NCBI GenBank assembly: GCA_028693565.1
Contig: JAQUVE010000008.1
Location: 1 to 42,222, forward strand
DNA: 42,222 bases
Source: Sulfurospirillaceae bacterium
GTDB lineage: Bacteria; Campylobacterota; Campylobacteria; Campylobacterales; Sulfurospirillaceae
Reading direction: 5' to 3'
Both the position numbers and the translations under genes were made by a program. Under the pieces are notes generated by a model, which was not told where the DNA came from, ran no database searches, and was given only the letters and a program-made list of their open reading frames with translations. Below are positions 2,727 through 41,796 of this stretch, piece after piece. The number at the start of each line of letters is the position of its first letter. Position 1 is the first letter of the stretch.

Positions 2727-4058
2727 ATGAAACATTCAGAACTGGTTAAAATAACCGAATACCTCCAGCAATTTAAAAAAATATCCTCCATCTCACGTGC
2801 AGATGATAATGTGCTTAAAATCTATTTTGAGCGAGGCTTACCTTTGTTTGTGGATTTGAGCCGTAATGATTCGTATGTTTTTATCAAAGAAGATTTTAAA
2901 CGCTCTAAACTTTATAATGCTCCCTTTGATGTTATTCTCTCAAAGCGTTTTGCCAACAGTGCTTTAGAAGTGGTTGAAGTAGAGGCGGGCAACCGCATTT
3001 TACGTTTGCGTGCTTTGGCAAGTTCTAGTTATAAAGCGCAACGTACCATCTTACAACTTGAATTTACAGGGCGCAACACCAATGCTATCATTTTAGATGA
3101 TGAAGGCATTGTATTAGAAGCACTTCGTCATATTGATGCAAGTGTTAGTTTTCGCAGTGTTAAAGTAGGTGAGCCTCTAGTTGCATTGCCTCCACGAGAA
3201 CTTAAAGAAAAGTCTTTTGAGATGCAAGGATGCATTGAAGAGCATCTAGCATTGGCCTATCAAAAACGTTTGCAAGTGAGGCTTACAGATAGTAAAACAC
3301 AAAAAATAGCCCTTATTAGCAAGAAGATAGAGAAACTTATAGCACATATCAACATATTGGAAAATGAGGCTGAACTTTATGTCCAGAGTGATATCGCTAA
3401 TCATCACGGTACGCTAGTGCTTGCTAATTTACAGCATATCAAGGGATACCAAGAGTCTGTAAATATAGTGGATTTTGAAGGTAATGACATTGAAATTCCA
3501 TTGCCCAAAGAGGCACAAACCCCTCAAATGGCGGCCAATATACTTTTTAAAAAGTCTAAAAAGTTACGCCAAAAAGCGCTTTCTGTGCATCGACAAAAAG
3601 AAAATTTAGAGGAGAAAAAGCTCTTTTTAGAACGCTTGTGTGAAATGGTGCACAGTTGTGTCGATGAGGAAGAACTTAATATCTTCGTGCCAAAACAACG
3701 TCAAAGTAAACAAAAAAATGATGATAGTTTGTATTATGAAACCTTTTTTCTTGAGGGCTATAAAATTATGCTTGGCAAAAATGAAAAAGGTAATATCACC
3801 TTACTCAAAGAAGCCAAAAAAAGTGATATTTGGTTACACATCAAAGAAATGCCTTCAGCTCATGTTATCATTAGGACGGAAAAACAAAATATTCCCGAAC
3901 CCGTTTTACTTTTTGCCGCAAAGCTATGCGTAAATTTTAGCGTCTCTCAAAAAGGTGGCTATTTGGTCGATTATACTCCACGTAAAAACGTTAAACCTTT
4001 TGATGGAGCGAATGTTGCTTATGAAGTGTATCAAACACTGAAAATTTATAAAGAGTAG
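2727..4058 (+). CDS. NFACT family (RqcH/Tae2/fibronectin-binding-like) protein
   Basis: N-terminal NFACT-N-like region (LQLEFTGRNTNAIILDDEG), coiled coil, and NFACT-R-like C-terminus (DIWLHIKEMPSAHVIIRTE ... VDYTPRKNVKP). Confidence 0.85.
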   Translation: MKHSELVKITEYLQQFKKISSISRADDNVLKIYFERGLPLFVDLSRNDSYVFIKEDFKRSKLYNAPFDVILSKRFANSALEVVEVEAGNRILRLRALASSSYKAQRTILQLEFTGRNTNAIILDDEGIVLEALRHIDASVSFRSVKVGEPLVALPPRELKEKSFEMQGCIEEHLALAYQKRLQVRLTDSKTQKIALISKKIEKLIAHINILENEAELYVQSDIANHHGTLVLANLQHIKGYQESVNIVDFEGNDIEIPLPKEAQTPQMAANILFKKSKKLRQKALSVHRQKENLEEKKLFLERLCEMVHSCVDEEELNIFVPKQRQSKQKNDDSLYYETFFLEGYKIMLGKNEKGNITLLKEAKKSDIWLHIKEMPSAHVIIRTEKQNIPEPVLLFAAKLCVNFSVSQKGGYLVDYTPRKNVKPFDGANVAYEVYQTLKIYKE

Positions 4059-4069
4059 CGACGTATTTC

Positions 4070-4140
4070 TGGCTTTCAAGAGCCAAGCTTTAGCGCCTAG
4101 AGCAACGTAGCTTTTTGGGCTTTGCCTAAGAAGCGTGTAA
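4070..4140 (+). repeat. intergenic two-hairpin repeat, copy A
   Basis: Hairpin 1 4070-4075/4080-4085; hairpin 2 4110-4120/4124-4134 (11 bp, TTT loop). Aligns without gaps to copy B (6443-6513). Confidence 0.8.
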
Positions 4141-4160
4141 AGATGAAAAAGGAGCCTCTC

Positions 4161-4481
4161 ATGCCCGTTGGTCCTATTGGTAGTGTGATTTATGCCAATC
4201 AACTCACGACACTTCAAGCTTCCAAACAAGGTGATTATCAAAATAGAGTTGACATACAAAATGCTGCTGCGGCAGCTTTACTTAACGAAAAAGAAGATGA
4301 AATTCAAGAGGTGAGGCCCACTGAGGAAACGTATCGTATTGATCCTGAAAATGAACATGAAAAACAAAAGCGTGATGAAGAGAGTGGCGAAAAAGAAGAA
4401 GAGATACGTCAAGAAAAGCATGCGCATACGCAAGACGATGAAGAACCTACCCATTTAGGCTTACTAGACATTAAAGCTTAA
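4161..4481 (+). CDS. small highly charged hypothetical protein
   Basis: ATG at 4161 has AAAGGAG upstream; MPVGPIGSVIYANQLTTLQ then a Glu/Lys-rich tail. Confidence 0.7.
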   Translation: MPVGPIGSVIYANQLTTLQASKQGDYQNRVDIQNAAAAALLNEKEDEIQEVRPTEETYRIDPENEHEKQKRDEESGEKEEEIRQEKHAHTQDDEEPTHLGLLDIKA

Positions 4482-4530
4482 ACTCACATTTGCTTTGCTA
4501 TTATTTTAAAAATTACATGAAGAGTAAAGC

Positions 4531-5295
4531 ATGAACCTCAAAGCACTAATTGAATCCAATAAACAACGTGTCCTCACTGGTCTTGCCATGATTGCATTTG
4601 CTGCGGTTGTCGCCTTTTTAGACAATGGTTTTCTTACATGGGCCATTTTAGGAGTGATGTATCTTTTTGCATTTTATGAATCTATGAATCTTTTTGGTGT
4701 TAAAGACAATAAACTTTTTGTCTATGCGGTCGCATTGTGGCTTTGCGCTTATGTTTACCCAAATCCAGATGATTTAATTTATTTAATGCTTATCATCTCT
4801 TTAGCCATTATGGCGTATACAAAACAGATCAATTATGCCATGCTTGCGCCACTTTTGTATCCTTCTATTCCGATGCTCTTTATGTATACGTTATACCATG
4901 ATTTTGGCATGAATATTTTATTGTGGCTGGTGATCGTAGTAGCACTGACTGACACAGGGGCTTACTTTGTAGGTAAAAGTATCGGTAAAACACCTTTTTC
5001 TCCCACGTCACCCAATAAAACGCTAGAAGGGGTTTTAGGTGGAGTCATTATCGCTAGTATTGCTGGGTTTTTAGTCGGCAATTTTTTCGTTTCTGTATGG
5101 CTTGCTCTTTTCATCTCTGTGATTGTTTCGGTCACTTCAGTTTTTGGTGATTTATTTGAGAGTTTACTCAAACGAGAAGCGGATGTTAAAGATAGTGGTA
5201 CTCTTTTCCCTGGTCATGGAGGGATGTTAGATCGTTTGGATGGTTATTTATTTAGTGTGATTGTGATGGTTATCTTACTTAGAGGGCTTGCTTAA
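4531..5295 (+). CDS. cdsA: phosphatidate cytidylyltransferase
   Basis: Polytopic; C-terminal signature SVFGDLFESLLKREADVKDSGTLFPGHGGMLDRLDGYLF. Confidence 0.95.
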   Translation: MNLKALIESNKQRVLTGLAMIAFAAVVAFLDNGFLTWAILGVMYLFAFYESMNLFGVKDNKLFVYAVALWLCAYVYPNPDDLIYLMLIISLAIMAYTKQINYAMLAPLLYPSIPMLFMYTLYHDFGMNILLWLVIVVALTDTGAYFVGKSIGKTPFSPTSPNKTLEGVLGGVIIASIAGFLVGNFFVSVWLALFISVIVSVTSVFGDLFESLLKREADVKDSGTLFPGHGGMLDRLDGYLFSVIVMVILLRGLA

Positions 5296-26712: not shown

Positions 26713-26739
26713 TAAAGTTTTTAAATGAGCTTCCGATAT
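26713..26739 (+). promoter_or_regulatory. sigma-28 (FliA) promoter of the flagellin gene
   Basis: TAAAGTTT-N11-TCCGATAT matches the FliA consensus TAAAGTTT-N11-GCCGATAA. Confidence 0.85.
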
Positions 26740-26794: not shown

Positions 26795-29227
26795 ATGGGT
26801 TTCCGTATTAATACTAACATTGCAGCGCTCAACTCTCATACAGCCGCTACAATGAACAACAGAAGTTTGGACAATTCTCTTTCTAAATTGTCTTCAGGTC
26901 TCCGTATCAACAAAGCAGCAGATGATGCTTCTGGTCTTGCGATTGCAAACTCATTGCGTGCACAAGCAAGCTCACTTGGTCAAGCAGTATCTAATGGTAA
27001 CGATGCGATTGGTTTGATTCAGACTGCCGATGGTGCGCTTAGCGAATACTCTAATATTCTTGATACTATCAAGACTAAAGCAGTACAAGCAGCGTCTGAC
27101 GGTCAAAACTCAGCTTCTCGTCTTGCGATTCAAAAAGATATCAATCGTTTGCTTGAGAACTTGAACAATATTGCTAAAACAACATCGTTCAACGGTCAAA
27201 AATTGCTTTCTGGTACATTCTCGAATAAAGAATTCCAAGTAGGTGCTAATGCAAATGAGACCATCAAAGCTTCAATCTCTTCTGCTGAGACAAGCCAAAT
27301 TGGTCAAACTAGTCGTGCTACTTTAACAGTTGCGGCTGGAGACAATCAATTGACTTTGAAAAGTGCAATCAGTGGACAAGAGATTACTCTTGAATCAGTG
27401 AGTATCTTGTCAAATAACAATCCGGCAAATGGCGTAGGAGCAATTGCTGGTGCAATCAATAAGTATAGTGCTGAAACAGGTATTACTGCAAAAGCTGTTG
27501 TAAGTTCAACAACAGAGGCAGCTATCAAAGCAGGTACTACAGGTGCTGATTTTGCTATCAATGGCGTCAATATTGGTGCAATCAATGTTTCAGCTAATGA
27601 CAGCGAAGCTACTTTGATGACAGCAATTAATAATAAATCTACTGAAACAGGTGTCAATGCAACAAGAACAGTAGATGGAAAAATTACATTGACATCAACA
27701 GATGGTCGCGCAATTAGTGTTACAGGAGATATTTCTGCAACAACTGGAAGTACAGCTGAGCAAATGAGTACTATTGGTCATCTTGAAGTTGTTCAAGCAG
27801 GTTCTTCTACGTTCCAAATTACTGGATCAGACCTTGGTTCCGCTGTTGGTGCAGATATTACTACTTCTGGTACTACAAATATGGTTCAAGACTCTCAATT
27901 AGCTATAGGTAGTATCATTGCTTCAGGAAGCGTTCTCGCAAAAGGAACAAAAACAGGTGTTCTTATTACAGCAACTACTGGTATGAGCCTTGTTACAGAT
28001 TCTTCAACAGCAGATATGACATTGGCTGTAGGGTCAGTTCTTGGTAGTGGTACTATGCTTAATAAAGATACAGTTCTTGCTTCAAAAATTAGTGTCACTG
28101 GTACTACTGCATTAAGTAGTAGTATGTTTGTAAAAGCAGGTTCAACATTGGCTTCTGGTACTATCCTTGACGCAGGTACTGTTTTAAATCAAGACTTTAC
28201 TATTCAAGGTACTACCTATAAGGCAGGAATGACGCTTACTCAAGCCGTAACTATCACTACAAGCTCTGTTATTCTTTCAAAAGATATGACAATTAATGTC
28301 AATAAAACTACACCTACCTCAGCAATTGGTGATGGTAGTGTCTTGCTTGCAGGAACAATTTTAGGTGCAGATATTACTATATCTTCAACTTCAACGCTTG
28401 CAACGGATATGACGCTTAAAACAGGTAGTGTATTAGGTACTTCTACTCAAATGGCGGCTGGTTCTATTTTGGGGCAAAGTATCACTATTACTGCTGCACC
28501 ATTGGCGGCAACAACTACTCTTATGGATGTTAAAGTAGGTTCAATTCTTGCTACAGCTTCTACTATTAAAGAAGGATCTTCTTTAGGTGGCGCAACAGTA
28601 GTAGCAAGTGCTTTAACATTAAATAGTGATATGTTAGTGAAAGCAGGCTCCACATTGTTATCAGGAACTGTTTTAAAAGCAGGTACAGTGGTTACGCAAG
28701 ATCTAAGCGCACTCCAAGCGGGAAATGAAGGCGTTGCTATTGCTGCGGGTACTGTTCTTGGTACTGATCTTACATTAACAGCAGATGTTTATACACAAAA
28801 AGATATGACGCTTCTCAAAGGTTCTGGTACAGCTGGCTCTATTGCAGCAGGTTCAACATTGGCAGCAAATGGTGGAAATCAAAACAGTGTAGCACTTAGC
28901 GATGCTGAGTTTTCTAACTTATCTAAAATTGATGTTACAACACTTGAAGGTGCAATGAAAGCTATCGATACAGTTAGTGCGGCGATGACAAACCTAGATA
29001 CTATTCGTTCAGATTTAGGTTCTGTTCAAAACCAAATTACTTCTACAATTAACAACATTTCAGTAACGCAAGTAAACGTTAAATCAGCGGAATCAAATAT
29101 CCGTGATGTTGACTTTGCTGCAGAATCTGCGAACTTTAGTAAGTTCAATATTCTTGCACAATCTGGTTCATACGCTATGAGCCAAGCAAATGCAGTTCAA
29201 CAAAATGTATTAAGACTACTTCAATAG
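26795..29227 (+). CDS. flaA: flagellin with large variable region (flagellin hook-IN-like modules plus hexad-repeat domain)
   Basis: MGFRINTNIAALNSHTAATMNNRSLDNSLSKLSSGLRINKAADDASGLAIANSLRAQ N-terminus; AESANFSKFNILAQSGSYAMSQANAVQQNVLRLLQ C-terminus. Confidence 0.96.
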   Translation: MGFRINTNIAALNSHTAATMNNRSLDNSLSKLSSGLRINKAADDASGLAIANSLRAQASSLGQAVSNGNDAIGLIQTADGALSEYSNILDTIKTKAVQAASDGQNSASRLAIQKDINRLLENLNNIAKTTSFNGQKLLSGTFSNKEFQVGANANETIKASISSAETSQIGQTSRATLTVAAGDNQLTLKSAISGQEITLESVSILSNNNPANGVGAIAGAINKYSAETGITAKAVVSSTTEAAIKAGTTGADFAINGVNIGAINVSANDSEATLMTAINNKSTETGVNATRTVDGKITLTSTDGRAISVTGDISATTGSTAEQMSTIGHLEVVQAGSSTFQITGSDLGSAVGADITTSGTTNMVQDSQLAIGSIIASGSVLAKGTKTGVLITATTGMSLVTDSSTADMTLAVGSVLGSGTMLNKDTVLASKISVTGTTALSSSMFVKAGSTLASGTILDAGTVLNQDFTIQGTTYKAGMTLTQAVTITTSSVILSKDMTINVNKTTPTSAIGDGSVLLAGTILGADITISSTSTLATDMTLKTGSVLGTSTQMAAGSILGQSITITAAPLAATTTLMDVKVGSILATASTIKEGSSLGGATVVASALTLNSDMLVKAGSTLLSGTVLKAGTVVTQDLSALQAGNEGVAIAAGTVLGTDLTLTADVYTQKDMTLLKGSGTAGSIAAGSTLAANGGNQNSVALSDAEFSNLSKIDVTTLEGAMKAIDTVSAAMTNLDTIRSDLGSVQNQITSTINNISVTQVNVKSAESNIRDVDFAAESANFSKFNILAQSGSYAMSQANAVQQNVLRLLQ
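27890..28875 (+). repeat. degenerate protein-level tandem repeat in flagellin
   Basis: About eight units of the form DMxxxxGSxLxSGTxLxAGTVLxxDxTIT..., with GS/GT every ~6 residues; weakly conserved in DNA. Confidence 0.85.
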
Positions 29228-29263: not shown

Positions 29264-31267
29264 CTACTTCAAATATTTTTCAAGTTTTGTGATATAAAGC
29301 TCTGATATCTTAAATAATTGTCTTATTAAAAGAGCGTTTATTTTTGTTACATGTTTATTAGGATTGTTAAGGTCTTTTGTATTAAAAAGGTCAAAGATAT
29401 AGCTAAGAACAATAGGAAAATATTCATAATAGACTTGCGCCAAATCTGATTGACGTTTATAATCCATATCGCTTAAATCCCAAGATAACTTTCCTATGGC
29501 AGCAAGATAAGCTTCTGCATGAACAAACTTCTTCTTAGCGAATTGTTTAATAATTTTTTCTAATTTTTTAGCTACTGTGATTTGATGTTTTATCTGCCCT
29601 CTATCTGCTTCATTAAACTCTGCTTCGCTAATATTCTTTAAAAAATGCATAAGCTTTTCATGTATTTGAGACTGGTTGAGTATCTCAAATTGTTCCCAGT
29701 TAAAGTCTTGTGTATGAAGTGGTTCCGCACCTTTGAGGTATGCTCCATTACTGAGATTATAAACAGCTGTTGTCTCGCTCTTTAATGTATCTGTAAAAAC
29801 TTCAAATTGCATATGAGATATTTTATAAGGTGCAAGAACAGGTACTTGGTCTAAAAAATTTCCACGTACAAAGTCAACAGAAGCTGTGGGATCAAGAGAT
29901 GCATTCTTTTCATCAATTTCGCCTTGCTTTTGGTAAGCATGAAAGCCTCCATGGGTTTGAAGCGTTTCACTATCAAGGGCTAAATCAATACCTAATAAAA
30001 ATACTTTTTTTGCTCCAAAGATTAGAAAAAGTCCATAGCTATACTCTCCGACACTGGGTGCAGAAAGTCTTCCAAAACCTTTTTTATAAGTGGTTCCTTG
30101 TTCTATAAAATGTATTTTTTCTCGGTCAAATCGTTGGACGGTTGTTTCATCTACATTGGAAGCAAGAAGGACAATGGTACCTTTAAAGTACTCTTTGGCA
30201 TCATTAATACCTTCAAAGAGTGATGCAGTAGTATCTGCGCCTGGATCTATATGTATAACGACATCAGGAGAGATATTGTGATGTTGCAGAATTCTGCAAG
30301 TTGATAGGGCCGATACCACGATGAAGCGGCAACGATTGGCTTTAACCCATTCAATATTTTTGAGTGTTGAAGGGCCTGAAAAAAGGAGTAAGATGGGTTT
30401 TTCTGACACGATATTTTGAGAGTGCAGTTGATTAACATTTACAAAAGAGTAGTTTTGCGATAAATAATGAGGTGAATCAATAAATCGAAGCAGCATCGCA
30501 CTGTAACCATAACTAATATAATCTTGTGCAAGAACATGACCTTGAAGTCTTCTAAGTTGAGGCTCATAATTGAGATTAAAAGGAATATGTTTCATATTAA
30601 GGTTAAAGTTATTGCCTTTGTCTAAAAATTGAGTAAAGATTACTCTTTCTGGCATCTCCTCATCAGCAATAGAAAAATAACAATAATAATTTTGTGTCAG
30701 GAGTTTGTAATTTGTAACAAATAAAGAAAGTCTAAAAAGCTCAAGATTTTTTTCTTTTATAAAAATAACTTGTGGATTGAGTTTTTTAAGAACACCTTCA
30801 AGATGAAGCCCCAAGCCAACATCTAAAAAAATAACTTTCTGTACCTTAGACATATAGGTTTCGGGACCAGTATAGGCTTGTGTATAATTTATAATTTTTA
30901 TTGTTGCCCATAGTGAATTATGAAATGAAAGTTCACTTTTATCGATGTAATCAGCTTGTTCCTCGTTTGCATAAACATATTTGTGTGCTTTAAAAACAGC
31001 TCCAGTACGCTTTAGGTTGAGATTTTCAACTATTCTTTTGGAATACTCAATGCTATTTTCTCCATAAAGCCATTCATTACTGCTTATTTCTAAGACATCA
31101 AAATACCCCTCTTCTTTATACTCCAGAGCATAGTGTTCTTTATAGGTACCGTCATCAATAAGTTGATTTAAAAGAGTAAGTTTTTCATAAATCGGTTTAT
31201 GATTTTCTTCAAAATATTTGAGGTTTTCTTGAAATGTTTGTAATGCAAGTTTTTCTATATCATGCAT
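29264..31267 (-). CDS. motility accessory factor (Maf, DUF115/MAF_flag10-like) flagellin glycosyltransferase
   Basis: SEKPILLLFSGPSTLKNIEWVKANRCRFIVVSALSTCRILQHHNISPDVVIHIDPG; VGEYSYGLFLIFGAKKVFLLGIDLALD. Confidence 0.88.
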   Translation of the reverse strand: MHDIEKLALQTFQENLKYFEENHKPIYEKLTLLNQLIDDGTYKEHYALEYKEEGYFDVLEISSNEWLYGENSIEYSKRIVENLNLKRTGAVFKAHKYVYANEEQADYIDKSELSFHNSLWATIKIINYTQAYTGPETYMSKVQKVIFLDVGLGLHLEGVLKKLNPQVIFIKEKNLELFRLSLFVTNYKLLTQNYYCYFSIADEEMPERVIFTQFLDKGNNFNLNMKHIPFNLNYEPQLRRLQGHVLAQDYISYGYSAMLLRFIDSPHYLSQNYSFVNVNQLHSQNIVSEKPILLLFSGPSTLKNIEWVKANRCRFIVVSALSTCRILQHHNISPDVVIHIDPGADTTASLFEGINDAKEYFKGTIVLLASNVDETTVQRFDREKIHFIEQGTTYKKGFGRLSAPSVGEYSYGLFLIFGAKKVFLLGIDLALDSETLQTHGGFHAYQKQGEIDEKNASLDPTASVDFVRGNFLDQVPVLAPYKISHMQFEVFTDTLKSETTAVYNLSNGAYLKGAEPLHTQDFNWEQFEILNQSQIHEKLMHFLKNISEAEFNEADRGQIKHQITVAKKLEKIIKQFAKKKFVHAEAYLAAIGKLSWDLSDMDYKRQSDLAQVYYEYFPIVLSYIFDLFNTKDLNNPNKHVTKINALLIRQLFKISELYITKLEKYLK

Positions 31268-31889
31268 GAAACCCCTTTTTCTCCATTAGAAACCATGTTG
31301 TATCACCTTGCATAAAAACTGGGTCTCTGCGATACACAAAACCATAATCTACTAATTGTAAATCTGGGTACGTCTCCATAAGCTCTCCTGCAAAATCTCG
31401 TTTATACATTTTATCACTATGCTCTCTATAAGGGATTTCCATAGGAGTAGGGTTATAGTACTCTATCATACAGATATAACGGTTACTGTTTTCGTACATC
31501 GTTTTATAGACTTGGGGTAACATGGTAGGTTCAAGATGAATCAATACGCCTTTAGAAAAAACAAAATCATTTTTCTCATTGGAAGAAAAATCAAAAATTG
31601 ATTGATGGTAAACTGTTAAATCTTTAATTTGTGAGAGTTGTTCGACTGCTTTGGCATTAATTTCAATAGCACTAAATTTTACATGTGGAAGTAAGCTTTT
31701 AAGCGCATGAATATTCATCCCAATATTCGCTCCAAATTCAATGACAGAATGCACATTCCTTGTGTGTCGGAGAATGGTTGAAAAAAGTGCAGTATTGGAT
31801 GCGAGTAGCCATGCATCTTTATTGCGTGAGATGTATTCGTCGCCAAATTCACCAGCCCAAAATTTTTCTTGTTCCGTTTTAAATGAATT
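31260..31889 (-). CDS. pseudaminic-acid-biosynthesis-associated methylase
   Basis: TEQEKFWAGEFGDEYISRN; SVIEFGANIGMNIHALK; FVFSKGVLIHL. Start moved to MNSFKTEQ. Confidence 0.82.
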   Translation of the reverse strand, partial: NSFKTEQEKFWAGEFGDEYISRNKDAWLLASNTALFSTILRHTRNVHSVIEFGANIGMNIHALKSLLPHVKFSAIEINAKAVEQLSQIKDLTVYHQSIFDFSSNEKNDFVFSKGVLIHLEPTMLPQVYKTMYENSNRYICMIEYYNPTPMEIPYREHSDKMYKRDFAGELMETYPDLQLVDYGFVYRRDPVFMQGDTTWFLMEKKGFHA

Positions 31890-31923
31890 CATAGTGTGCC
31901 TTGTGTGTAAAATTTGTAGAATA

Positions 31924-32445
31924 TTAAGCAAAAACTATGCCGTACTCCAAGATATCATAGAAGGTACCATCTTTAAATAGTGCCTCTTTGCGTCTGCCTT
32001 CAAGCTTCATGCCTAAAGAAAGGGCGAGACGCTGCATCGGAGTGTTGGCTTCACTTGTTCCGCAATAGATGCGGTGCAGTTTTAAAATCTCAAAACCATA
32101 CTTTAGTAAAAGTTTTCCTGCCTCTTTGGAAAGTCCTTTACCCCAAAAGGCTTTATCGCCGAGTAAGATGGCAAATTCTGCGCTTTGATTTTTGGTTGAA
32201 ATGGCTTGGAGCGCGATATTGCCAATGTGCTTATCGCTTGCTTTATCGCAGATCGCAAAGACTTTACATGTAGGGTTGTTTTGCACATTTTGAATGTAAG
32301 AAAGCGCCATCTCTTTGGTGTAAAGCGTATCGCCGTGTGAGTTATATCGACAGACTTCATAATCGTTCAACCAAGAGGGATAATTTCTCTCAGCATCGTT
32401 TACATGTAAAGGTCGAAGATAGAGATGCTCTCCAGCGAGTTTCAC
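31924..32445 (-). CDS. GNAT (RimJ/RimL-like) acetyltransferase in the glycosylation locus
   Basis: LRPLHVNDAERNYPSWLNDYEVCRYNSHG ... AFWGKGLSKEAGKLLLKYGFEILKLHRIYCGTSEANTPMQRLALSLG. GTG at 32445 gives a GTGA overlap with the DegT gene. Confidence 0.83.
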   Translation of the reverse strand: MKLAGEHLYLRPLHVNDAERNYPSWLNDYEVCRYNSHGDTLYTKEMALSYIQNVQNNPTCKVFAICDKASDKHIGNIALQAISTKNQSAEFAILLGDKAFWGKGLSKEAGKLLLKYGFEILKLHRIYCGTSEANTPMQRLALSLGMKLEGRRKEALFKDGTFYDILEYGIVFA

Positions 32446-33740
32446 GCCAGTTCCTCTCTGTTTTCCCATACTTTAATAAACGCTTTAACCACATCGTCCA
32501 TATCTTCTTTGCTCATACCAGGGCGCATCAGTTCATGCGTGAAAAGACGCTCAAAATGGAGACTCTCACACACGGGGCAGTCACCTTCTTGGTAGGCTAC
32601 AGTTGAGAGATTAAACGGATAACCTTTGCTTCCAAAGGCCATTTTATGTGCAAATATAGGTTGTAAGTAGATAGGTTTAACGTAACCGCAACCTATTAAA
32701 ACATCAGAATCATCACGCATCAGTGTGCGCGGAAGTTCGGCTTTGACTGCTTTAATGAAGACATCACGGGAGACACCAGCTTTGACAGCGTCAAACTCCA
32801 AAGGATGCACATAAAACGCGTGTTTGACATGTTCTCTTTGGAGTGTGGTTCTAAGGCAGGGAATGCTTTTGAGTGCTTCGTTGATGTAGGCGACATTGTT
32901 TTGGCGTTGTAGCACTAAATCGGGGAGTTTTTTGAGTTGTTCACGTGCTACTGCACATTCCATCTCTGTCATACGAAAGTTAAATCCAACCATATTAATG
33001 AGGTCTTTGGGTGAATCAAAGCCTTTATTGGCGATAACGGATTCGGCGTGATTTCGGATAAGTTGTAGTTTATTGGCTAGAACATCATCATTGGTCACGA
33101 TAACACCGCCTTCACCTGCGTGAATATGTTTGTGGTAATTAAGTGAATAAACACCTATATCGCCCAACGTTCCAGCGTAACGTTCTTTATACATGGCACC
33201 AGGAGCTTGCGCCGCATCTTCGATAACGATGAGGTTATGCTCTTTAGCGATAGCATTGATGGCTTCAACATCATAAGGTTGTCCGAAAATATCGACAACG
33301 ATGATAGCTTTTGTCTTTTGTGTGATATTCTTTTCAACACTTTTCGGATCTAAACAGTAGGTATCTTTTTCAACATCCGCAAAGACAGGAATGCCTCCAT
33401 AAAAAAGTGGCGCAACAGCTGAGGCTGACATGGTGTACGGACTAACAATGACTTCATCTCCTTCCTCAATGCCCGCAGCACCCACAGCGCAAATAAGCCC
33501 AGAGGTTGCTGAGTTGACGCTAATGGCATGCTTAACACCAAAGTATGCTGCCCACTCTTGCTCAAATGCTTTAACTTCCACACCACCGTAAAAATCTTCA
33601 TGCCAAGCGCCTAAATATGTAGAGAGTTTTCCGCTTCGCAGAACTCTTAAAACAGCTTCTTCTTCCTCTTTTCCTATCGTGTTGTAAGCAGGAAAAGGTT
33701 TAGTGCGGAGTTTTTCTCCACCGTTAATGGCTAGTTTCAT
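32442..33740 (-). CDS. DegT/DnrJ/EryC1/StrS aminotransferase
   Basis: VKHAISVNSATSGLICAVGAAGIEEGDEVIVSPYTMSASA; IEDAAQAPGA; YSLNYHKHIHAGEGGVIVTND (PLP lysine). Confidence 0.92.
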   Translation of the reverse strand: MKLAINGGEKLRTKPFPAYNTIGKEEEEAVLRVLRSGKLSTYLGAWHEDFYGGVEVKAFEQEWAAYFGVKHAISVNSATSGLICAVGAAGIEEGDEVIVSPYTMSASAVAPLFYGGIPVFADVEKDTYCLDPKSVEKNITQKTKAIIVVDIFGQPYDVEAINAIAKEHNLIVIEDAAQAPGAMYKERYAGTLGDIGVYSLNYHKHIHAGEGGVIVTNDDVLANKLQLIRNHAESVIANKGFDSPKDLINMVGFNFRMTEMECAVAREQLKKLPDLVLQRQNNVAYINEALKSIPCLRTTLQREHVKHAFYVHPLEFDAVKAGVSRDVFIKAVKAELPRTLMRDDSDVLIGCGYVKPIYLQPIFAHKMAFGSKGYPFNLSTVAYQEGDCPVCESLHFERLFTHELMRPGMSKEDMDDVVKAFIKVWENREELA

Positions 33741-34699
33741 GTATGTTTCTCTTTGTTGATAGTTTCAAAAATTTTTTCATGAAGGACAATGTGCTCTTCT
33801 AAAATTTGCTTTGCTTTTATATCGTCCACACTGAGTAAAAATTCAAGGGAGTGAAGGGCGTAAAATTGAAGAGAATTAGGAAGGCTTGTTTCGTGCTCTA
33901 AGGTAAAATAACCCTCATAAAGTGAAGAAGGTTTTTTCGCATAGGTATCGATTTTTGCACCTCCTTCTTTGATTTCAATTTTGCCATGTTCAAACCAAAT
34001 GCTAAGCTCAAACGCTGAGTAAGGAAGCTCATCTATACAACTCAGTAGTCCTTGTGCTTTTTCCAAGCTGACTTCAAAATCACCACTGATATCGTGTTCT
34101 AAAAGTTTTACGTGTAAAGGCTCAATAATTTTTATTTGTCCAAAAAAGTAGCTAAGAATATCAAGCATATGGATGCCATTGTGCAGTAAGCCTTTGGTGA
34201 AAACACCTTGAAAACGCAAAACTTTGCCCCATTTATGCATCGCAATATCATTGGCAAGTTGGATAAAAGAGGGGTCATATCTGCGCATTAAATGGATAAG
34301 AATTCTCTTGTCGCTCTCAAGTAGTAAAGGTTTTAAATGTTCTAATTCTTTTAGTGTGCTCACTAAAGGTTTTTCGCACATAATATACTTAATATTTTTT
34401 ACATGTAAAGCATCTTCAAGTGCTTTGGCGTGAAAAGGAGTAGGTGAAGCAAGTGCTAGGAGGTCGATAGTTTCGTATTCGAAAAGTGCATCTAAGGCAT
34501 AATAGACTCCAACTTTACCCCAACGCCCTATGAAAGCTTGTTGGTTGGTAATGCTTGGCTCACAAATGGCCACAAGCTTACAGTTTGAGTGTTTTGCAAT
34601 GGCATGAGCATGTGAAGCGATATTGGTGCTTTGAGGCGAATCTATCAATCCCCCAATACTTCCAGACCCAACAATCGCACACGAAAGTGGCTTTTGCAT
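33737..34699 (-). CDS. Gfo/Idh/MocA family oxidoreductase
   Basis: CAIVGSGSIGGLIDSP; LALASPTPFHAKALEDAL; MCEKPLVSTLKELEHL. Confidence 0.88.
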   Translation of the reverse strand: MQKPLSCAIVGSGSIGGLIDSPQSTNIASHAHAIAKHSNCKLVAICEPSITNQQAFIGRWGKVGVYYALDALFEYETIDLLALASPTPFHAKALEDALHVKNIKYIMCEKPLVSTLKELEHLKPLLLESDKRILIHLMRRYDPSFIQLANDIAMHKWGKVLRFQGVFTKGLLHNGIHMLDILSYFFGQIKIIEPLHVKLLEHDISGDFEVSLEKAQGLLSCIDELPYSAFELSIWFEHGKIEIKEGGAKIDTYAKKPSSLYEGYFTLEHETSLPNSLQFYALHSLEFLLSVDDIKAKQILEEHIVLHEKIFETINKEKHT

Positions 34700-34874
34700 T
34701 AGTTTCCTAAGTAGACTTCTCTCATAACCCATTGAAAAAAGAGTATCGCTTATAGCACATCACTTTTTAAAACTAAAAACATCGCCATAGCTTTGGTTAT
34801 GACTCAATTTTGAGTTTTAAAAATTAACGCACTCTACCCAAACTCTTTATCTTTTCAAGAGTTATGAAAGAAGT

Positions 34875-35849
34875 CTAATGATTTTTTATAAATAAAGCAA
34901 AATCTGTACCGAAATCGTGATGGTGTTTTTGTGCGATATGAAGTTGCGTTATATTGAGGTTTTTAAGGCTCTTGAGTTGGTTGGATTGGGGCAGAGGAAC
35001 TGAACATTCTCGTTTATCCGAAGGAATATAAGAGATAACTTTTTTGCCGAGTAAATAAGCAGTATAAAGGGCTACGGTGTCAATACCGATGATAATTTTG
35101 GCATTTGCAATATCTTCTAAAAGCGTATCGTGGCTAAATTCTATGGTGTTATCAATGGTTTGGTAAGTTTCAGGTGAGTCGGAGGGATGTAAGCGAATAA
35201 TTATTTTCTCACAGCCAAATTTTTCTTTACATGTAAGGATATTTTCAAACACTTCTTTTTCAGTAAAACCCCAAAAATAGGTATCTCCAAAAGAAGCTTG
35301 AGCCACTTTGGCGGTAGGTTCGCTCAAGAAAAGTAAGGTATTACTTTGTTTTGTGTCTTTAAAAGCTTTTAGTTGTGCAAGAAGGGCATAATTTTTTATA
35401 GCGATAATATTGGGGAGTCCTAACTCTTTTGCTTTGTCCTCGCTGGTTTTATCATGCGCAACGATAAAGCTGGGTAGGTTGTTTTCCCAATTTGGCTCTG
35501 GATAACCAAAGCGTTCACGGTAATTTGTCCAGTGGTCTAAAAATGCAAGACTTGGGAGTTTGTGCTCTTTGGCATAGTCTAAAAAGTGGTACTCAAGATG
35601 GTTTTGCCAACCAGTACTATACAGGATGATGGAAGGATTAAAAAAAAAGAGTTTAGCATGAATCTCTTCTTTAATAGGTGCAATTTTACAGCTATATGCT
35701 TCAATATTTTTTGCTTCAATCAGCCTAAAACAAGGTGAATCTGCCAAACAAAAAACGCGAAATTGCCCCACATGTAAAGAAGCCTTGAGCAATTCCAGAA
35801 GAATTTCTGCCCCTCCAGCATCGTGGGCAAATAAAGCAATTTTTTTCAC
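34875..35849 (-). CDS. GT-B-like protein of unknown function in the pse locus
   Basis: IALFAHDAGGAEILLELL; IIIRLHPSDSPETY; IIGIDTVALYTAYLLGKKVISYIP resemble GT-B/epimerase-type proteins; ATGA overlap with pseI. Confidence 0.55.
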   Translation of the reverse strand: MKKIALFAHDAGGAEILLELLKASLHVGQFRVFCLADSPCFRLIEAKNIEAYSCKIAPIKEEIHAKLFFFNPSIILYSTGWQNHLEYHFLDYAKEHKLPSLAFLDHWTNYRERFGYPEPNWENNLPSFIVAHDKTSEDKAKELGLPNIIAIKNYALLAQLKAFKDTKQSNTLLFLSEPTAKVAQASFGDTYFWGFTEKEVFENILTCKEKFGCEKIIIRLHPSDSPETYQTIDNTIEFSHDTLLEDIANAKIIIGIDTVALYTAYLLGKKVISYIPSDKRECSVPLPQSNQLKSLKNLNITQLHIAQKHHHDFGTDFALFIKNH

Positions 35850-36883
35850 TCAATATCTTCTTTTTTGAGCCTATCTCCAAAATGTAAATCCACTTTGGCA
35901 GATTTACCTAAAATCTCGTTTAGATATTTGGGATGAAGTCCGTATCCTGGGCGAATGGAGCGGATATTTTCTTCGCTGAATTTTTCACCTTTTTTAATAT
36001 CTTTTGCGACATAAAGACTTCGACTAAACTGTCGTCCTTTGATGGCTTGTTCATCGGTATGGTAAGTTGGTTTACCTAAAAGTTTTTCGGTATCACGTAC
36101 CGCTTGTACCATATGTGAAAATTCATCAACATCGAGTGAAAAAGAGGCATCCGCTCCACCGATAGTTTTGTCTAAAATAAAATGTTTTTCAATGACTTTT
36201 GCTCCAAGTGCTACTGCCGCAATGGGTGCTGTAATGCCTAATGTGTGGTCTGAAAATCCTGCTAGTACTCCAAACCTTTGACATAAATCAGGCATGGTTA
36301 GAAGATTTGCCCCTTCCAGTGGAGCAGGGTAAGAAGAGGTGCATTGCAACAAAATAATATTGTTATTGCCTACACTTTTGCAGATAGCCACCACATCTTC
36401 AATTTCTTGCAGTGTCGCAATGCCTGTGGAGATGATAATAGGCTTTTGGCAAGAAGCAATATAACGAACAAGCTCATAATCAGTGACTTCAAAGCTGGCC
36501 ACTTTGTAGGCGGGAGGATTAAGTGTTTCTAAAAAATCTACTGCACTTTTATCAAAAGGGGTTGAAAAGCAGAGCAGTCCCTCTTCTTTTGCTACGGCAA
36601 AAAGCTCTTGATGCCACTCCCATGGCGTATAAGCTTCTTGATAAAGAGCATAAAGTGTTTTGTTGTCCCAAAGTGTTCCCCCTTTGACGATAAAATCTTC
36701 TTTATCGCAGTTTAGAGTGAGTGTATCAGCGGTATATGTTTGCAGTTTTATGGCGTCTGCACCCGCTTTTTTGGCAGCTCTTATCGTCTCTTTTGCTGTT
36801 TCGATGCTATTGCCATGATTGGCTGAAAGCTCTGCAATAATGAATGTATGTGTACTCTCTAAGTCAAAATTACCGATTTTCAT
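35846..36883 (-). CDS. pseI: pseudaminic acid synthase
   Basis: FIIAELSANHGNSIETAKETIRAAKKAGADAIKLQTYTADTLTL; GFSDHTLGITAPIAAVALGAKVIEKHF; C-terminal SAF-like domain. Confidence 0.92.
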   Translation of the reverse strand: MKIGNFDLESTHTFIIAELSANHGNSIETAKETIRAAKKAGADAIKLQTYTADTLTLNCDKEDFIVKGGTLWDNKTLYALYQEAYTPWEWHQELFAVAKEEGLLCFSTPFDKSAVDFLETLNPPAYKVASFEVTDYELVRYIASCQKPIIISTGIATLQEIEDVVAICKSVGNNNIILLQCTSSYPAPLEGANLLTMPDLCQRFGVLAGFSDHTLGITAPIAAVALGAKVIEKHFILDKTIGGADASFSLDVDEFSHMVQAVRDTEKLLGKPTYHTDEQAIKGRQFSRSLYVAKDIKKGEKFSEENIRSIRPGYGLHPKYLNEILGKSAKVDLHFGDRLKKEDIE

Positions 36884-37352
36884 GTGTTAACTCCATACAA
36901 ATAACCTCTTTTTCATTGACGTATATGTGCGCTTTTTCGCAAAATCCAAATTTTTCATACAGCGCTTTGGCTCTTTGGTTGCCATCAAATACTTCAGCGA
37001 TGAGTGTTTTTACTTTTAATGTCTCAAACGCATACTCTATGATGGTTTGCATTAACAGCGAACCCATACCTTTTTGATGCAGCATAGGATTGGTGTAAAG
37101 TCCTAGTGTTGCACTGTGTGTGCTAATAGCATTAAAGTCGATAACACCGATATTTAAACCTTCATGTTGTGCTAGAAAATAGCGTTTGTCATCACGTGTT
37201 TTAAGGCTTTCGATAAAACCAAAATGCTCTGCTTCACTGATTGTGTGCGCATTGTACATATAGGTTTTGATATTTTCGTGGTTTCGCCACGCTAAAATCA
37301 TTCTTTTTTGAGCATCACTGAGTGTTGTAAAGTTGGTTAAATGCACACGCAT
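36870..37352 (-). CDS. pseH: UDP-4-amino-4,6-dideoxy-AltNAc N-acetyltransferase
   Basis: NFTTLSDAQKRMILAWRNHENIKTYMYN; GNAT fold; sits between pseG and pseI. Confidence 0.88.
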   Translation of the reverse strand: MRVHLTNFTTLSDAQKRMILAWRNHENIKTYMYNAHTISEAEHFGFIESLKTRDDKRYFLAQHEGLNIGVIDFNAISTHSATLGLYTNPMLHQKGMGSLLMQTIIEYAFETLKVKTLIAEVFDGNQRAKALYEKFGFCEKAHIYVNEKEVICMELTHENR

Positions 37353-38178
37353 CCCACTCCTTTAAAACAGGATACTCCTGCTGTTTTAAGTATCGATACA
37401 TATCGTCTTGGTTGTCTGCCACTTTAATGGCGATAAAAGGCAGTTCCATATAAAGTACTTCATGCACCATGACACTAGGTGTCGTGATAGCAAAATGGCT
37501 TTGGTGAAGCAGTTTGGCGACTTCATGTGAGTTTACGTGCAAGGTAATGTTAGGATTGGTTGCAATATAGTTTTGAAGTTCTTCAAGATAGGCATTGGCA
37601 GTTGTCGTCAGAACGCATACGTGCAACATGGGTGGTAATGTTTTTACGATAGATAGCGTGATGTTGGTAGCATCAGTCCCACCCATAGCGACCAATACAT
37701 CATATATCTTATCGCGTACTTGCTTTTTCTCTTCTCTAAATTCATCACGAATCAGTGTATATAAAATCCCACAGCGAAGTTCACAAGACTTTGGGACTAA
37801 TGTTTTATAGCGTTTTTTATCGGCTGAAATATTATGATTTAAAAGAATATCACAATGATGTGCTTGATAAGTGTCATCGAACGAGAGAATTTTTACACCC
37901 GTTGCTTCTTTGACAGCACGCTCAAAATGCGCATTAATTCCATAATGGTCGATAACCAACAAACTTATATGTAAAGTTTTTATGAGTTCTATAAGTTCAT
38001 CTTCGTTGTTGGTTTTTAAGATTTTGACTTCATAAGGGATAGAAGCGATAATGTTGCCTTCTAAGTTTTGGCAGGCAAAAATCACTTTATCTTCGCATTG
38101 TTTAGCAAAGACTAAATCACGCATAATATGCCCTAACCCTATCGTGCTAGAGCTATCACTTCGGATGAGTGTGCTCAC
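37315..38178 (-). CDS. pseG: UDP-sugar hydrolase of pseudaminate synthesis
   Basis: LIRSDSSSTIGLGHIMRDLVFAKQC; VAMGGTDATNITL; ITTPSVMVHEVLYMELPFIAIKVADNQ. Confidence 0.9.
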   Translation of the reverse strand: MSTLIRSDSSSTIGLGHIMRDLVFAKQCEDKVIFACQNLEGNIIASIPYEVKILKTNNEDELIELIKTLHISLLVIDHYGINAHFERAVKEATGVKILSFDDTYQAHHCDILLNHNISADKKRYKTLVPKSCELRCGILYTLIRDEFREEKKQVRDKIYDVLVAMGGTDATNITLSIVKTLPPMLHVCVLTTTANAYLEELQNYIATNPNITLHVNSHEVAKLLHQSHFAITTPSVMVHEVLYMELPFIAIKVADNQDDMYRYLKQQEYPVLKEWDACAFNQLYNTQ

Positions 38179-38860
38179 GATAAGCCCATCGCCTTGTACA
38201 TAAACTCAGCTCTCGTCCAATCCTCTGGCGTATCAATATCTTGTACCAAATGACGAGGCAATAACACAACACTTGAATGTGGTGCAAAAATCATTTTTCC
38301 CTCCAACCACGCTTGTGGTCTTCCCCAATAAAATTGTCCTGCGTCATGGTATGCCTCTTCCAAGTCTTGGCTTCGAGTACCAAAATGTTCTGGATAAAAC
38401 ATCTCCACAGCACCATCTTCTCTAAGCTTGATAGCACGCTGTATGGGAAAAGGAAAACTGGTTGCACTAAAGCAGTACTCTGATTGAGATGCCAGAAGCT
38501 TCTTATAGGCTTCTTGGATATAGTTTGGTTGCACAAAAGGTGCGGTGGCATAAAGACAACAGACCGCTTCAACCTCACTGAGGTCATGTACTGAAGCGGT
38601 AATGGCATGAGCGATGACGGGAATAGTTGCCGTGTGGTCATCACTGAGCTCTTTGGGGCGCATAAACGGAATGTCAGCGCCTAAGGATTGAGCTAACGTT
38701 GCGATTTCTTCATCATCGGTACTCACGACGATTTTATCAAAACAGCCACTTTGTAAGGCGGCTTCAATGCTATAAGCGATCATCGGTTTGCCACAAAATG
38801 CTTTGATATTTTTTCGAGGGATACGCTTACTCCCACCTCGTGCTGGAATCACAGCGAGTT

Positions 38861-38864
<4 letters not shown>
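38175..38864 (-). CDS. pseF: pseudaminic acid cytidylyltransferase
   Basis: LAVIPARGGSKRIPRKNIKAFCGKPMIAYSIEAA; CCLYATAPFVQP; YHDAGQFYWGR. Confidence 0.93.
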
Positions 38865-40992
<2,128 letters not shown>

Positions 40993-41076: not shown

Positions 41077-41796
41077 ATGCAAGTCGGCAATAGTTTCAAT
41101 ACACAAACAAGCAATTATGTGAATGACAATAAAACAGGGGTTGAAAAAGCACTCGCAAGAATTGCAGCAACCAAAGAGTTAAATGGCACAGATGGCGCAA
41201 GTTTGATACTTTCCAATGCCCTTTCATCTCAAATTTCTTCGATGACGCAAAGCATTCAAAATAGCAACGATGCTATTGGTATGTATCAGATTGCTGATGG
41301 TGCATTAAAGGCATTAAGCATCGGAAGTGATACGTTAGGTGAACTTTCTGTGCGTTATAACAGTGATACCCTTAATGCTTCTCAAAAAGGGAGTTTAGAG
41401 CAAGCGTTTACATCAGTAACAAAAGGTATGAAAGACATCATGGCTCAAGCCACTTTTAATGGTCAAAATGTGCTCTCTTCGACATTGGGACTTGATGCAT
41501 CACAATTAGATTCACTTTCAATCAGCAATCAGCAAAGTGTCAGTGATCTTCAAAACAATCTGACATCACTTAGCTCTGAAGTCAGCTCTCGTACCAAGTC
41601 TTATGAGGTCGGTATCGCCAATGCGCTTTCTTCCGTGAGTAATCTTACCAGTGCGAATGCGCAAATATCTGAAACACCGTTGGATAAAATCATCTCAGAC
41701 TTTTCTCAAAATCAGATCAAATTAGACAGTTCGATGATGGCTCAATTGCATCAAACAACGCTGATGCAGCAACAAATATCCACGTTATTAGCGTAA
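41077..41796 (+). CDS. flaC: FlaC-like short flagellin-related protein
   Basis: KALARIAATKELNGTDGASLILSNALSSQISSMTQSIQNSNDAIGMYQIADGALKALSIGSDTLGELSVRYNSDTLNASQKGSL and ATFNGQNVLSS resemble Campylobacter FlaC; no D2/D3 insert. AAGGAGG RBS. Confidence 0.82.
   Translation: MQVGNSFNTQTSNYVNDNKTGVEKALARIAATKELNGTDGASLILSNALSSQISSMTQSIQNSNDAIGMYQIADGALKALSIGSDTLGELSVRYNSDTLNASQKGSLEQAFTSVTKGMKDIMAQATFNGQNVLSSTLGLDASQLDSLSISNQQSVSDLQNNLTSLSSEVSSRTKSYEVGIANALSSVSNLTSANAQISETPLDKIISDFSQNQIKLDSSMMAQLHQTTLMQQQISTLLA

What the first reader, a model, noticed from the sequence alone, without database searches (positions are those of the whole stretch)
27890..28875. Flagellin variable region built from hexad repeats, predicted beta-solenoid
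Seen directly: the 810-aa flagellin has canonical ends, but its middle is a degenerate array such as VKAGST-LLSGTV-LKAGTV-VTQDLS, VKAGST-LASGTI-LDAGTV-LNQDFT and LAVGSV-LGSGTM-LNKDTV. Hydrophobics recur every 6 residues, followed by G-[ST]. About eight ~35-50 aa units often begin DM[TL]. Established: the [LIV]-x-x-x-[ST]-x hexad is the hallmark of left-handed beta-helix/solenoid proteins, and flagellin D2/D3 domains are surface-exposed and variable. Inference: the filament may display solenoid outer domains, an unusual flagellin architecture.
Basis: partly seen in the sequence, partly recalled or inferred. Interest (0 to 1): 0.82.

Follow-up and report, generated by a model that had tools for sequence, protein, structure and literature searches.

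The report
Flagellin carrying a hexad-repeat beta-solenoid rod
The only full flagellin gene found in this Sulfurospirillum-type bacterium has, in the surface-exposed middle of the protein, about 340 residues predicted to coil into a long rod of the kind normally seen in sugar-modifying enzymes, and across species this rod comes and goes together with the neighbouring gene for a flagellin-type sugar-attaching enzyme.

Summary
The 810-aa flagellin (26795-29227, +) has normal D0/D1 ends and a Flagellin_IN D2. Residues ~350-690 are a degenerate hexad array: period-6 hydrophobics exceed all shuffles, and there are 20 [LIVM]xxG[ST] motifs against 3.5 expected. AlphaFold2 on 25 homologous inserts gives a confident solenoid-like pattern (mean pLDDT 86.5, pTM 0.79, 52 short strands ~6 residues apart). 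A profile of the insert matches only left-handed beta-helix (hexapeptide) proteins among the 60 PDB matches shown (best E 8e-9); reversed and shuffled controls lose the Hexapep match. Foldseek gave no meaningful match, so handedness and cross-section remain unconfirmed. Relatives at the same locus carry either this ~800-aa flagellin or a ~480-520-aa one with a 41-53-aa loop in its place; the states alternate at least 5 times on a core-gene tree. A homologue (>=34% identity) of the adjacent Maf glycosyltransferase occurs in exactly the 17 solenoid genomes, and Maf and solenoid divergence track each other (partial r 0.83 given core genes). A complete pseudaminic-acid pathway follows. Best reading: a rigid, O-glycosylated outer-domain rod inherited with its Maf as one unit. 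Related solenoid flagellins occur in Desulfobulbales-type MAGs. New variant of a known kind.

The parts
26713..26739 (+). sigma-28 (FliA)-type promoter TAAAGTTT-N11-TCCGATAT upstream of the flagellin gene
   Evidence: Exact pattern found once in the window, 0 expected in shuffles; consensus from general knowledge. A looser pattern matches upstream of the flagellin in only a few relatives
26795..29227 (+). flagellin gene, 810 aa
   Evidence: Pfam Flagellin_N/IN/C; only full-length flagellin found in this draft assembly, which has three Flagellin_N hits: this one, a 239-aa protein, and an FlgL-type protein on another contig
26795..27319 (+). N-terminal D0/D1 (aa 1-175)
   Evidence: Flagellin_N aa 5-142; mean pairwise identity 86% among 16 homologues
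27320..27769 (+). D2-type region with Flagellin_IN motif (aa 176-325)
   Evidence: Flagellin_IN aa 252-303, E 2e-7; 65% mean identity
27842..28864 (+). hexad-repeat beta-solenoid domain (aa ~350-690), replacing a 41-53-aa loop of short relatives at the same locus
   Evidence: Periodicity; AF2 pLDDT ~85-95 over most of this stretch, 52 strands ~6 aa apart; Hexapep/LbH profile matches; insertion edges
28937..29224 (+). C-terminal D1/D0 (aa ~715-810)
   Evidence: Flagellin_C aa 724-809, E 7.9e-30
29264..31267 (-). Maf-type flagellin glycosyltransferase (convergent neighbour), co-distributed with the solenoid
   Evidence: MptE-like E 1.9e-24 and Maf_flag10_N E 1.2e-12; distribution; distance correlation; independent pairs
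35846..40968 (-). complete pseudaminic-acid pathway: pseI 35846-36883, pseH 36870-37352, pseG 37315-38178, pseF 38175-38873, pseC 38861-40021, pseB 39979-40968
   Evidence: NCBIfam equivalogs TIGR03586, 03585, 03590, 03584, 03588 and 03589, all above curated cut-offs

Best explanation
The insert is a flagellin outer domain (in the D3 position, following a D2 strand) folded as a hexad beta-solenoid, most likely a left-handed parallel beta-helix of ~17-18 coils (~54 hexads, roughly 8-9 nm long at the usual ~4.8 A per coil). Each flagellin subunit therefore adds a stiff Ser/Thr-rich rod to the filament surface. The rod is most likely O-glycosylated with pseudaminic-acid-type sugars made by the neighbouring pse genes and attached by the adjacent Maf. 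Rod and Maf are inherited or exchanged as one unit between species, alternating with a short flagellin that has other glycosylation genes beside it. The probable effect is a thicker, sugar-coated, antigenically or phage-receptor-distinct filament. Shown: hexad array, predicted solenoid, similarity to LbH profiles, exact replacement of a loop, switching, and Maf co-distribution. Inferred: handedness and cross-section, glycosylation of the rod itself, surface orientation, biological role.
For: AF2 on the insert: mean pLDDT 86.5, pTM 0.79, four of five models at 85.6-86.5; strand centres 5-7 aa apart in 45 of 51 gaps. Insert profile vs PDB: 70 matches at E<=10, and all 60 shown are LbH/hexapeptide-type proteins (QdtC 7.9e-9, LpxD, GlmU, LpxA, VioB, CcmN, eIF2B-epsilon, gamma-carbonic anhydrase). 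Pfam Hexapep and LbH_EIF2B match 24 of 25 homologues; two exceed Hexapep's cut-off (36.5 and 31.4 vs 27 bits), while reversed and shuffled sequences give no Hexapep match. Genome scans with the insert pick up LpxD-type enzymes as next-best hits. Length is conserved at 327-339 aa despite 49% mean identity. A 41-53-aa loop is replaced by ~345-355 aa at the same locus. A Maf homologue at >=34% identity is in exactly the 17 solenoid genomes; solenoid-Maf distance r 0.85, partial r given core genes 0.825, 0 of 5000 permutations, whereas D0/D1 vs solenoid partial r is 0.12. Solenoid/short needs 6 changes (>=5 on supported branches), and Maf goes with it in ~5 of 5 independent pairs, never against. 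All six pse genes are adjacent. Maf enzymes O-glycosylate flagellin Ser/Thr with nonulosonic acids (PMC11339370 abstract).
Against: Foldseek of the insert model against PDB and BFVD found nothing with E<=0.001, and TM-scores were ~0.1. LbH structures would be expected to appear if the model were a canonical LbH, unless Foldseek penalises highly periodic chains. The window's own sequence scores below the Hexapep and LbH_EIF2B cut-offs; only relatives exceed Hexapep's. D0/D1 was poorly modelled in the full-length run. Lag-18 identity is not enriched, so an 18-residue coil is not shown by autocorrelation. Glycosylation sites and rod orientation are untested. Linkage alone could explain the Maf correlation. 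Independent pairs are few (sign test p 0.06).
Confidence: 0.68

Rival explanations
1. The insert is a beta-solenoid of another geometry (for example a two-sided solenoid with 12-residue coils, or right-handed), which resembles the hexapeptide motif only by convergence.
For: Foldseek found no LbH match. Identity autocorrelation is high at lags 6, 12, 24 and 36 but not 18; a 36-residue super-repeat fits three 12-residue coils as well as two 18-residue coils.
Against: All 60 shown PDB profile matches are LbH-type proteins, and reversed or shuffled sequence loses the Hexapep match. Reading strands and loops by hand, 8 of 11 loops fall at the same corner if a coil is three hexads, including two pairs three hexads apart; this is suggestive only, since the 6-hexad super-repeat confounds it.
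Confidence: 0.2
2. The insert is an elongated outer domain with no glycan function: a bulky or stiff spacer that thickens the filament or stabilises it by lateral contacts, and the Maf link is passive hitch-hiking of neighbouring genes.
For: Gene order alone (solenoid ~400 bp from Maf) would give correlated histories, and D2 lies between D0/D1 and the solenoid in its correlation with Maf (0.29, 0.43, 0.85). Giant flagellins thicken filaments in marine gamma-proteobacteria (PMC6248924, abstract).
Against: The switch recurs at least five times and Maf accompanies it; short-flagellin genomes examined have different Maf-type and other glycosylation-type genes at the same place; S/T make up 25-33% of every insert.
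Confidence: 0.3
3. The insert is a low-complexity Thr/Ala/Ser/Gly linker and the hexads are a compositional artefact that AlphaFold over-interprets.
For: The composition is biased (T, A, S, G and L lead), and Foldseek does not match the model to a known structure.
Against: Periodicity exceeds shuffles in all 25 homologues. Hydrophobic positions are conserved in hexad register across large divergence, and length is nearly constant. Reversed sequence with the same composition and periodicity loses the Hexapep match.
Confidence: 0.04

Closest known systems
Campylobacter jejuni / Helicobacter pylori FlaA/FlaB-type flagellins (PDB 6x80, 9ygu, 9yh1)
   Same: Same D0/D1 and D2 plan (phmmer 3.8e-128 to 6x80, best stretch aa 1-456 plus a second stretch); both groups make pseudaminic acid for flagellin glycosylation (general knowledge; H. 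pylori: PMC4363471 abstract).
   Different: 6x80 is 576 aa; the ~340-aa hexad domain on its own has no match to any flagellin in the PDB.
Left-handed beta-helix hexapeptide-repeat proteins (LpxA, LpxD, GlmU, QdtC, DapH; Pfam Hexapep PF00132)
   Same: [LIV]-x-x-G-[ST]-x hexads; profile matches to PDB members and to Pfam Hexapep.
   Different: Embedded in flagellin; about 54 hexads, longer than the stretches matched in those enzymes; no acyltransferase domain found; Foldseek similarity not obtained.
Flagellinolysins (flagellins with a metallopeptidase in the hypervariable region; PMC5595980, PMC7643111)
   Same: A foreign domain placed in the central variable region of flagellin.
   Different: That insert is an enzyme; this one is a repeat solenoid with no catalytic domain found in Pfam.
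Giant flagellins of marine gamma-proteobacteria (PMC6248924)
   Same: Enlarged outer region, expected to thicken the filament.
   Different: Over 1000 aa; the terms helix, solenoid and hexapeptide do not occur in that paper's main text.

Membership tests
Bacterial flagellin (FliC/FlaA) | Flagellin_N and Flagellin_C helical ends above cut-off | tested here: met
   155.3 and 103.5 bits vs cut-offs 26.6 and 23
Bacterial flagellin (FliC/FlaA) | Assembles into the filament | not testable with these tools
   Only indirect: it is the only full-length flagellin found in a 99.6% complete draft assembly and has a sigma-28-type promoter
Left-handed beta-helix / hexapeptide repeat | Hexad motif [LIV]-x-x-x-[STAV]-x in tandem beyond chance | tested here: met
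   20 [LIVM]xxG[ST] vs 3.5 expected; all 25 homologues periodic
Left-handed beta-helix / hexapeptide repeat | Passes the Pfam Hexapep cut-off | tested here: inconclusive
   Window insert 21.9 bits vs 27 (below); homologues L018 36.5 and L067 31.4 (above); 24 of 25 match at E<=1
Left-handed beta-helix / hexapeptide repeat | Structural superposition on known LbH folds | tested here: not met
   Foldseek vs PDB: no LbH among the 50 listed rows, top TM ~0.1. The method may be insensitive to periodic chains; no coordinates were available for another comparison, so not filed as a proven LbH member
Left-handed beta-helix / hexapeptide repeat | Left-handed coil of three 6-residue sides | not testable with these tools
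   Model coordinates are not exposed; strand spacing of ~6 fits
Maf-type flagellin glycosyltransferase (neighbour) | MptE-like/DUF115 core and Maf N-terminal domain | tested here: met
   MptE-like 86.8 bits vs 34.6; Maf_flag10_N 48.2 vs 23.5
Flagellinolysin-type enzymatic flagellin | Catalytic domain in the variable region | tested here: not met
   No peptidase or other enzyme family above cut-off in the insert

The most novel reading that the evidence does not exclude
A flagellar filament whose every subunit carries an ~8-9-nm left-handed beta-helix rod serving as a rigid scaffold for nonulosonic-acid glycans, with rod and dedicated Maf glycosyltransferase exchanged between species as one surface-coat module, and the same rod type used by flagellins in a distant phylum.
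Probability: 0.42. Interest if true: 0.75.

Novelty: new variant of a known kind. Interest (0 to 1): 0.62.

Why it matters
Flagellin outer domains are known to be extremely diverse, but I found no report in the searched library of a hexapeptide-type solenoid in one. If confirmed it adds a fold best known from sugar and acyl transferases to the flagellar surface, predicts a measurably thicker filament, and gives a natural experiment: closely related strains, some cultured, that switch between the rod and a short loop at one locus along with their glycosyltransferase. That makes the question of what flagellin outer domains and their glycans are for directly testable. A rigid rod repeated thousands of times per filament could also be a useful display scaffold.

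Tried and rejected
1) Foldseek of the whole model matched only flagellin cores. Its odd hit 8d06_J is an alpha-helical coiled coil (PMC9724707), so it is irrelevant to the solenoid. 2) Foldseek of the insert vs PDB and BFVD: no usable match. 3) First genome-contig scan with the single sequence found nothing; the alignment-based scan did. 4) Weak hits L021-L026 at first looked like shorter solenoid proteins; they are LpxD-like hexapeptide enzymes. 5) No matches in plasmids or viral contigs. 7) Considered an enzymatic insert (no catalytic family), a low-complexity artefact (controls reject it), and a known D2/D3 fold (no PDB flagellin match for the insert).

Full report
Observation. The ORF at 26795-29227 (+) encodes an 810-aa flagellin with Flagellin_N, Flagellin_IN and Flagellin_C domains. 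Residues 331-700 have a strong period-6 hydrophobic signal (1.98 against a shuffle maximum of 1.29), and residues 351-690 contain 20 [LIVM]xxG[ST] motifs against 3.5 expected. The other regions of the protein lack the period-6 peak. The 'about eight DM units' are five exact plus about two degenerate starts. Identity autocorrelation gives peaks at 6, 12, 24, 30, 36 and 42 residues.

Setting. The genome is 2.78 Mb in 232 contigs, 99.6% complete. It has three Flagellin_N hits: this gene, a 239-aa flagellin-like protein at 41077-41796, and an FlgL-type protein on another contig. The genus is Sulfurospirillum: named contigs of the same lengths as same-genus genomes are S. diekertiae JPD-1 and S. 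cavolei UCH003. This is an inference, since the window itself is unnamed. A sigma-28-type promoter lies at 26713-26739.

Relatives. Within the family, 17 of 44 genomes (own included) carry a flagellin with a homologous insert. Sixteen full alignments give insert lengths of 327-339 aa. Mean pairwise identity is 49% in the solenoid, against 65% in D2 and 86-88% in D0/D1. An alignment-based scan of named genomes found the domain also in MAGs labelled Sulfurimonas and Sulfuricurvum, and outside the phylum in MAGs labelled Desulfurivibrio, Desulfobulbaceae, Deltaproteobacteria and Nitrospinota (MAG labels and binning not verified). Those are true flagellins. In several a FliD-like ORF follows, judged by eye from its N-terminus, and two have a longer solenoid region of ~525 aa.

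Fold. AF2 on the whole protein with 16 sequences modelled residues ~350-690 at pLDDT mostly 80-95, with 2-3-residue strands every ~6 residues, but modelled D0/D1 poorly. AF2 on the insert alone with 25 sequences gave mean pLDDT 86.5 and pTM 0.79. Of the 51 gaps between the 52 strand centres, 40 are 5.5-6.5 residues, and most of the others coincide with loops.

Independent sequence evidence points to left-handed beta-helix proteins. The insert profile against the PDB shows 60 rows, all of the hexapeptide/LbH type, best QdtC at 7.9e-9. Pfam Hexapep and LbH_EIF2B each match 24 of 25 members. Two homologues exceed Hexapep's cut-off, while reversed and shuffled sequences do not match it at all. NCBIfam also reports a weak NeuD/PglB/VioB acetyltransferase match inside the insert.

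Against this, Foldseek with the insert model gave no meaningful match in PDB or BFVD. I could not test whether that reflects Foldseek's treatment of periodic chains or a non-LbH geometry. I therefore hold beta-solenoid at about 0.9 and specifically left-handed triangular helix at about 0.7.

Locus and switching. All genomes examined keep the flagellin beside topA, bioB and citrate synthase where the contig allows. Short-flagellin species of the genus have a ~480-520-aa protein there, with 41-53 residues (in nearly all short relatives aligned) where the solenoid species have ~345-355. A tree of topA+gltA+bioB needs six changes between the two states, at least five of them on well-supported branches.

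Glycosylation link. The convergent neighbour at 29264-31267 is a Maf-type glycosyltransferase. Homologues of at least 34% identity occur in exactly the 17 solenoid genomes, immediately downstream; three further genomes have 31-33% homologues. Solenoid distances correlate with Maf distances (r 0.85; partial 0.825 after core genes; 0 of 5000 permutations) but hardly with D0/D1 of the same protein (partial 0.12). The nearest core-gene relative, G033, has topA, gltA and bioB at 92, 97 and 89% but solenoid only 41% and Maf 38%, whereas G016 and G023, more distant in core genes, have solenoid 75-76% and Maf 76-81%. The gene is thus a mosaic whose solenoid travels with Maf. Short-flagellin genomes carry other Maf-type and glycosyltransferase-like genes at the same place. 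The window also holds pseB, C, F, G, H and I, all above NCBIfam equivalog cut-offs. Maf enzymes attach nonulosonic acids to flagellin Ser/Thr (PMC11339370 abstract).

Mechanism. Inference: flagellins are exported unfolded through the filament channel (general knowledge). The rod would fold after export, stand on D2, and present a regular lattice of Ser/Thr-bearing faces. Glycosylation would occur in the cytoplasm before export, on the unfolded chain. This raises a point I cannot resolve: how Maf recognises the hexads. The conserved length suggests the rod's size is under selection rather than drifting by repeat expansion, at least within this family.

Literature. Searches for flagellin with beta-helix, solenoid or left-handed beta-helix in a 5.4-million-paper library found no report of such a domain in flagellin. 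Enzymatic and giant flagellins are known. Subscription papers are largely missing from this library.

Verdict. A real, well-conserved and previously unremarked (as far as could be searched) flagellin outer-domain architecture: new variant of a known kind.

Noticed in passing
window 41077-41796 (+): 239-aa protein with only a Flagellin_N domain, similar in plan to Campylobacter FlaC (secreted flagellin-like protein, from memory); relatives have one of ~240-285 aa too.
   Followed up: no
window 34875-35849 (-): 323-aa protein within the pse/glycosylation cluster with no Pfam or NCBIfam match.
   Followed up: no
window 31260-34732 (-): Methyltransferase-like, GNAT acetyltransferase, DegT aminotransferase and GFO/IDH oxidoreductase genes between Maf and pseI: probably further sugar modification.
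   Followed up: partly
L059:2032-7078, L070:832-5847, also L060, L065, L075: Tandem pairs of solenoid-type flagellin genes in relatives, whereas the window's genome has one.
   Followed up: no
L073 (Nitrospinota-labelled MAG) 408-1991; L075 (Deltaproteobacteria MAG) 3001-4575: Solenoid regions of ~525 aa, about 1.5 times longer: the rod length differs between phyla though nearly constant within the family.
   Followed up: partly
L142 (G011), L133 (G042): ~650-660-aa flagellins at the same locus with a different, non-hexad enlargement placed before D2: a further outer-domain type in the same family.
   Followed up: no
L110:3813-7693 (-) and equivalents in L112-L114: Next to short flagellins: a different Maf-type protein plus a ~660-aa protein with only a weak glycosyltransferase match.
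   Followed up: partly
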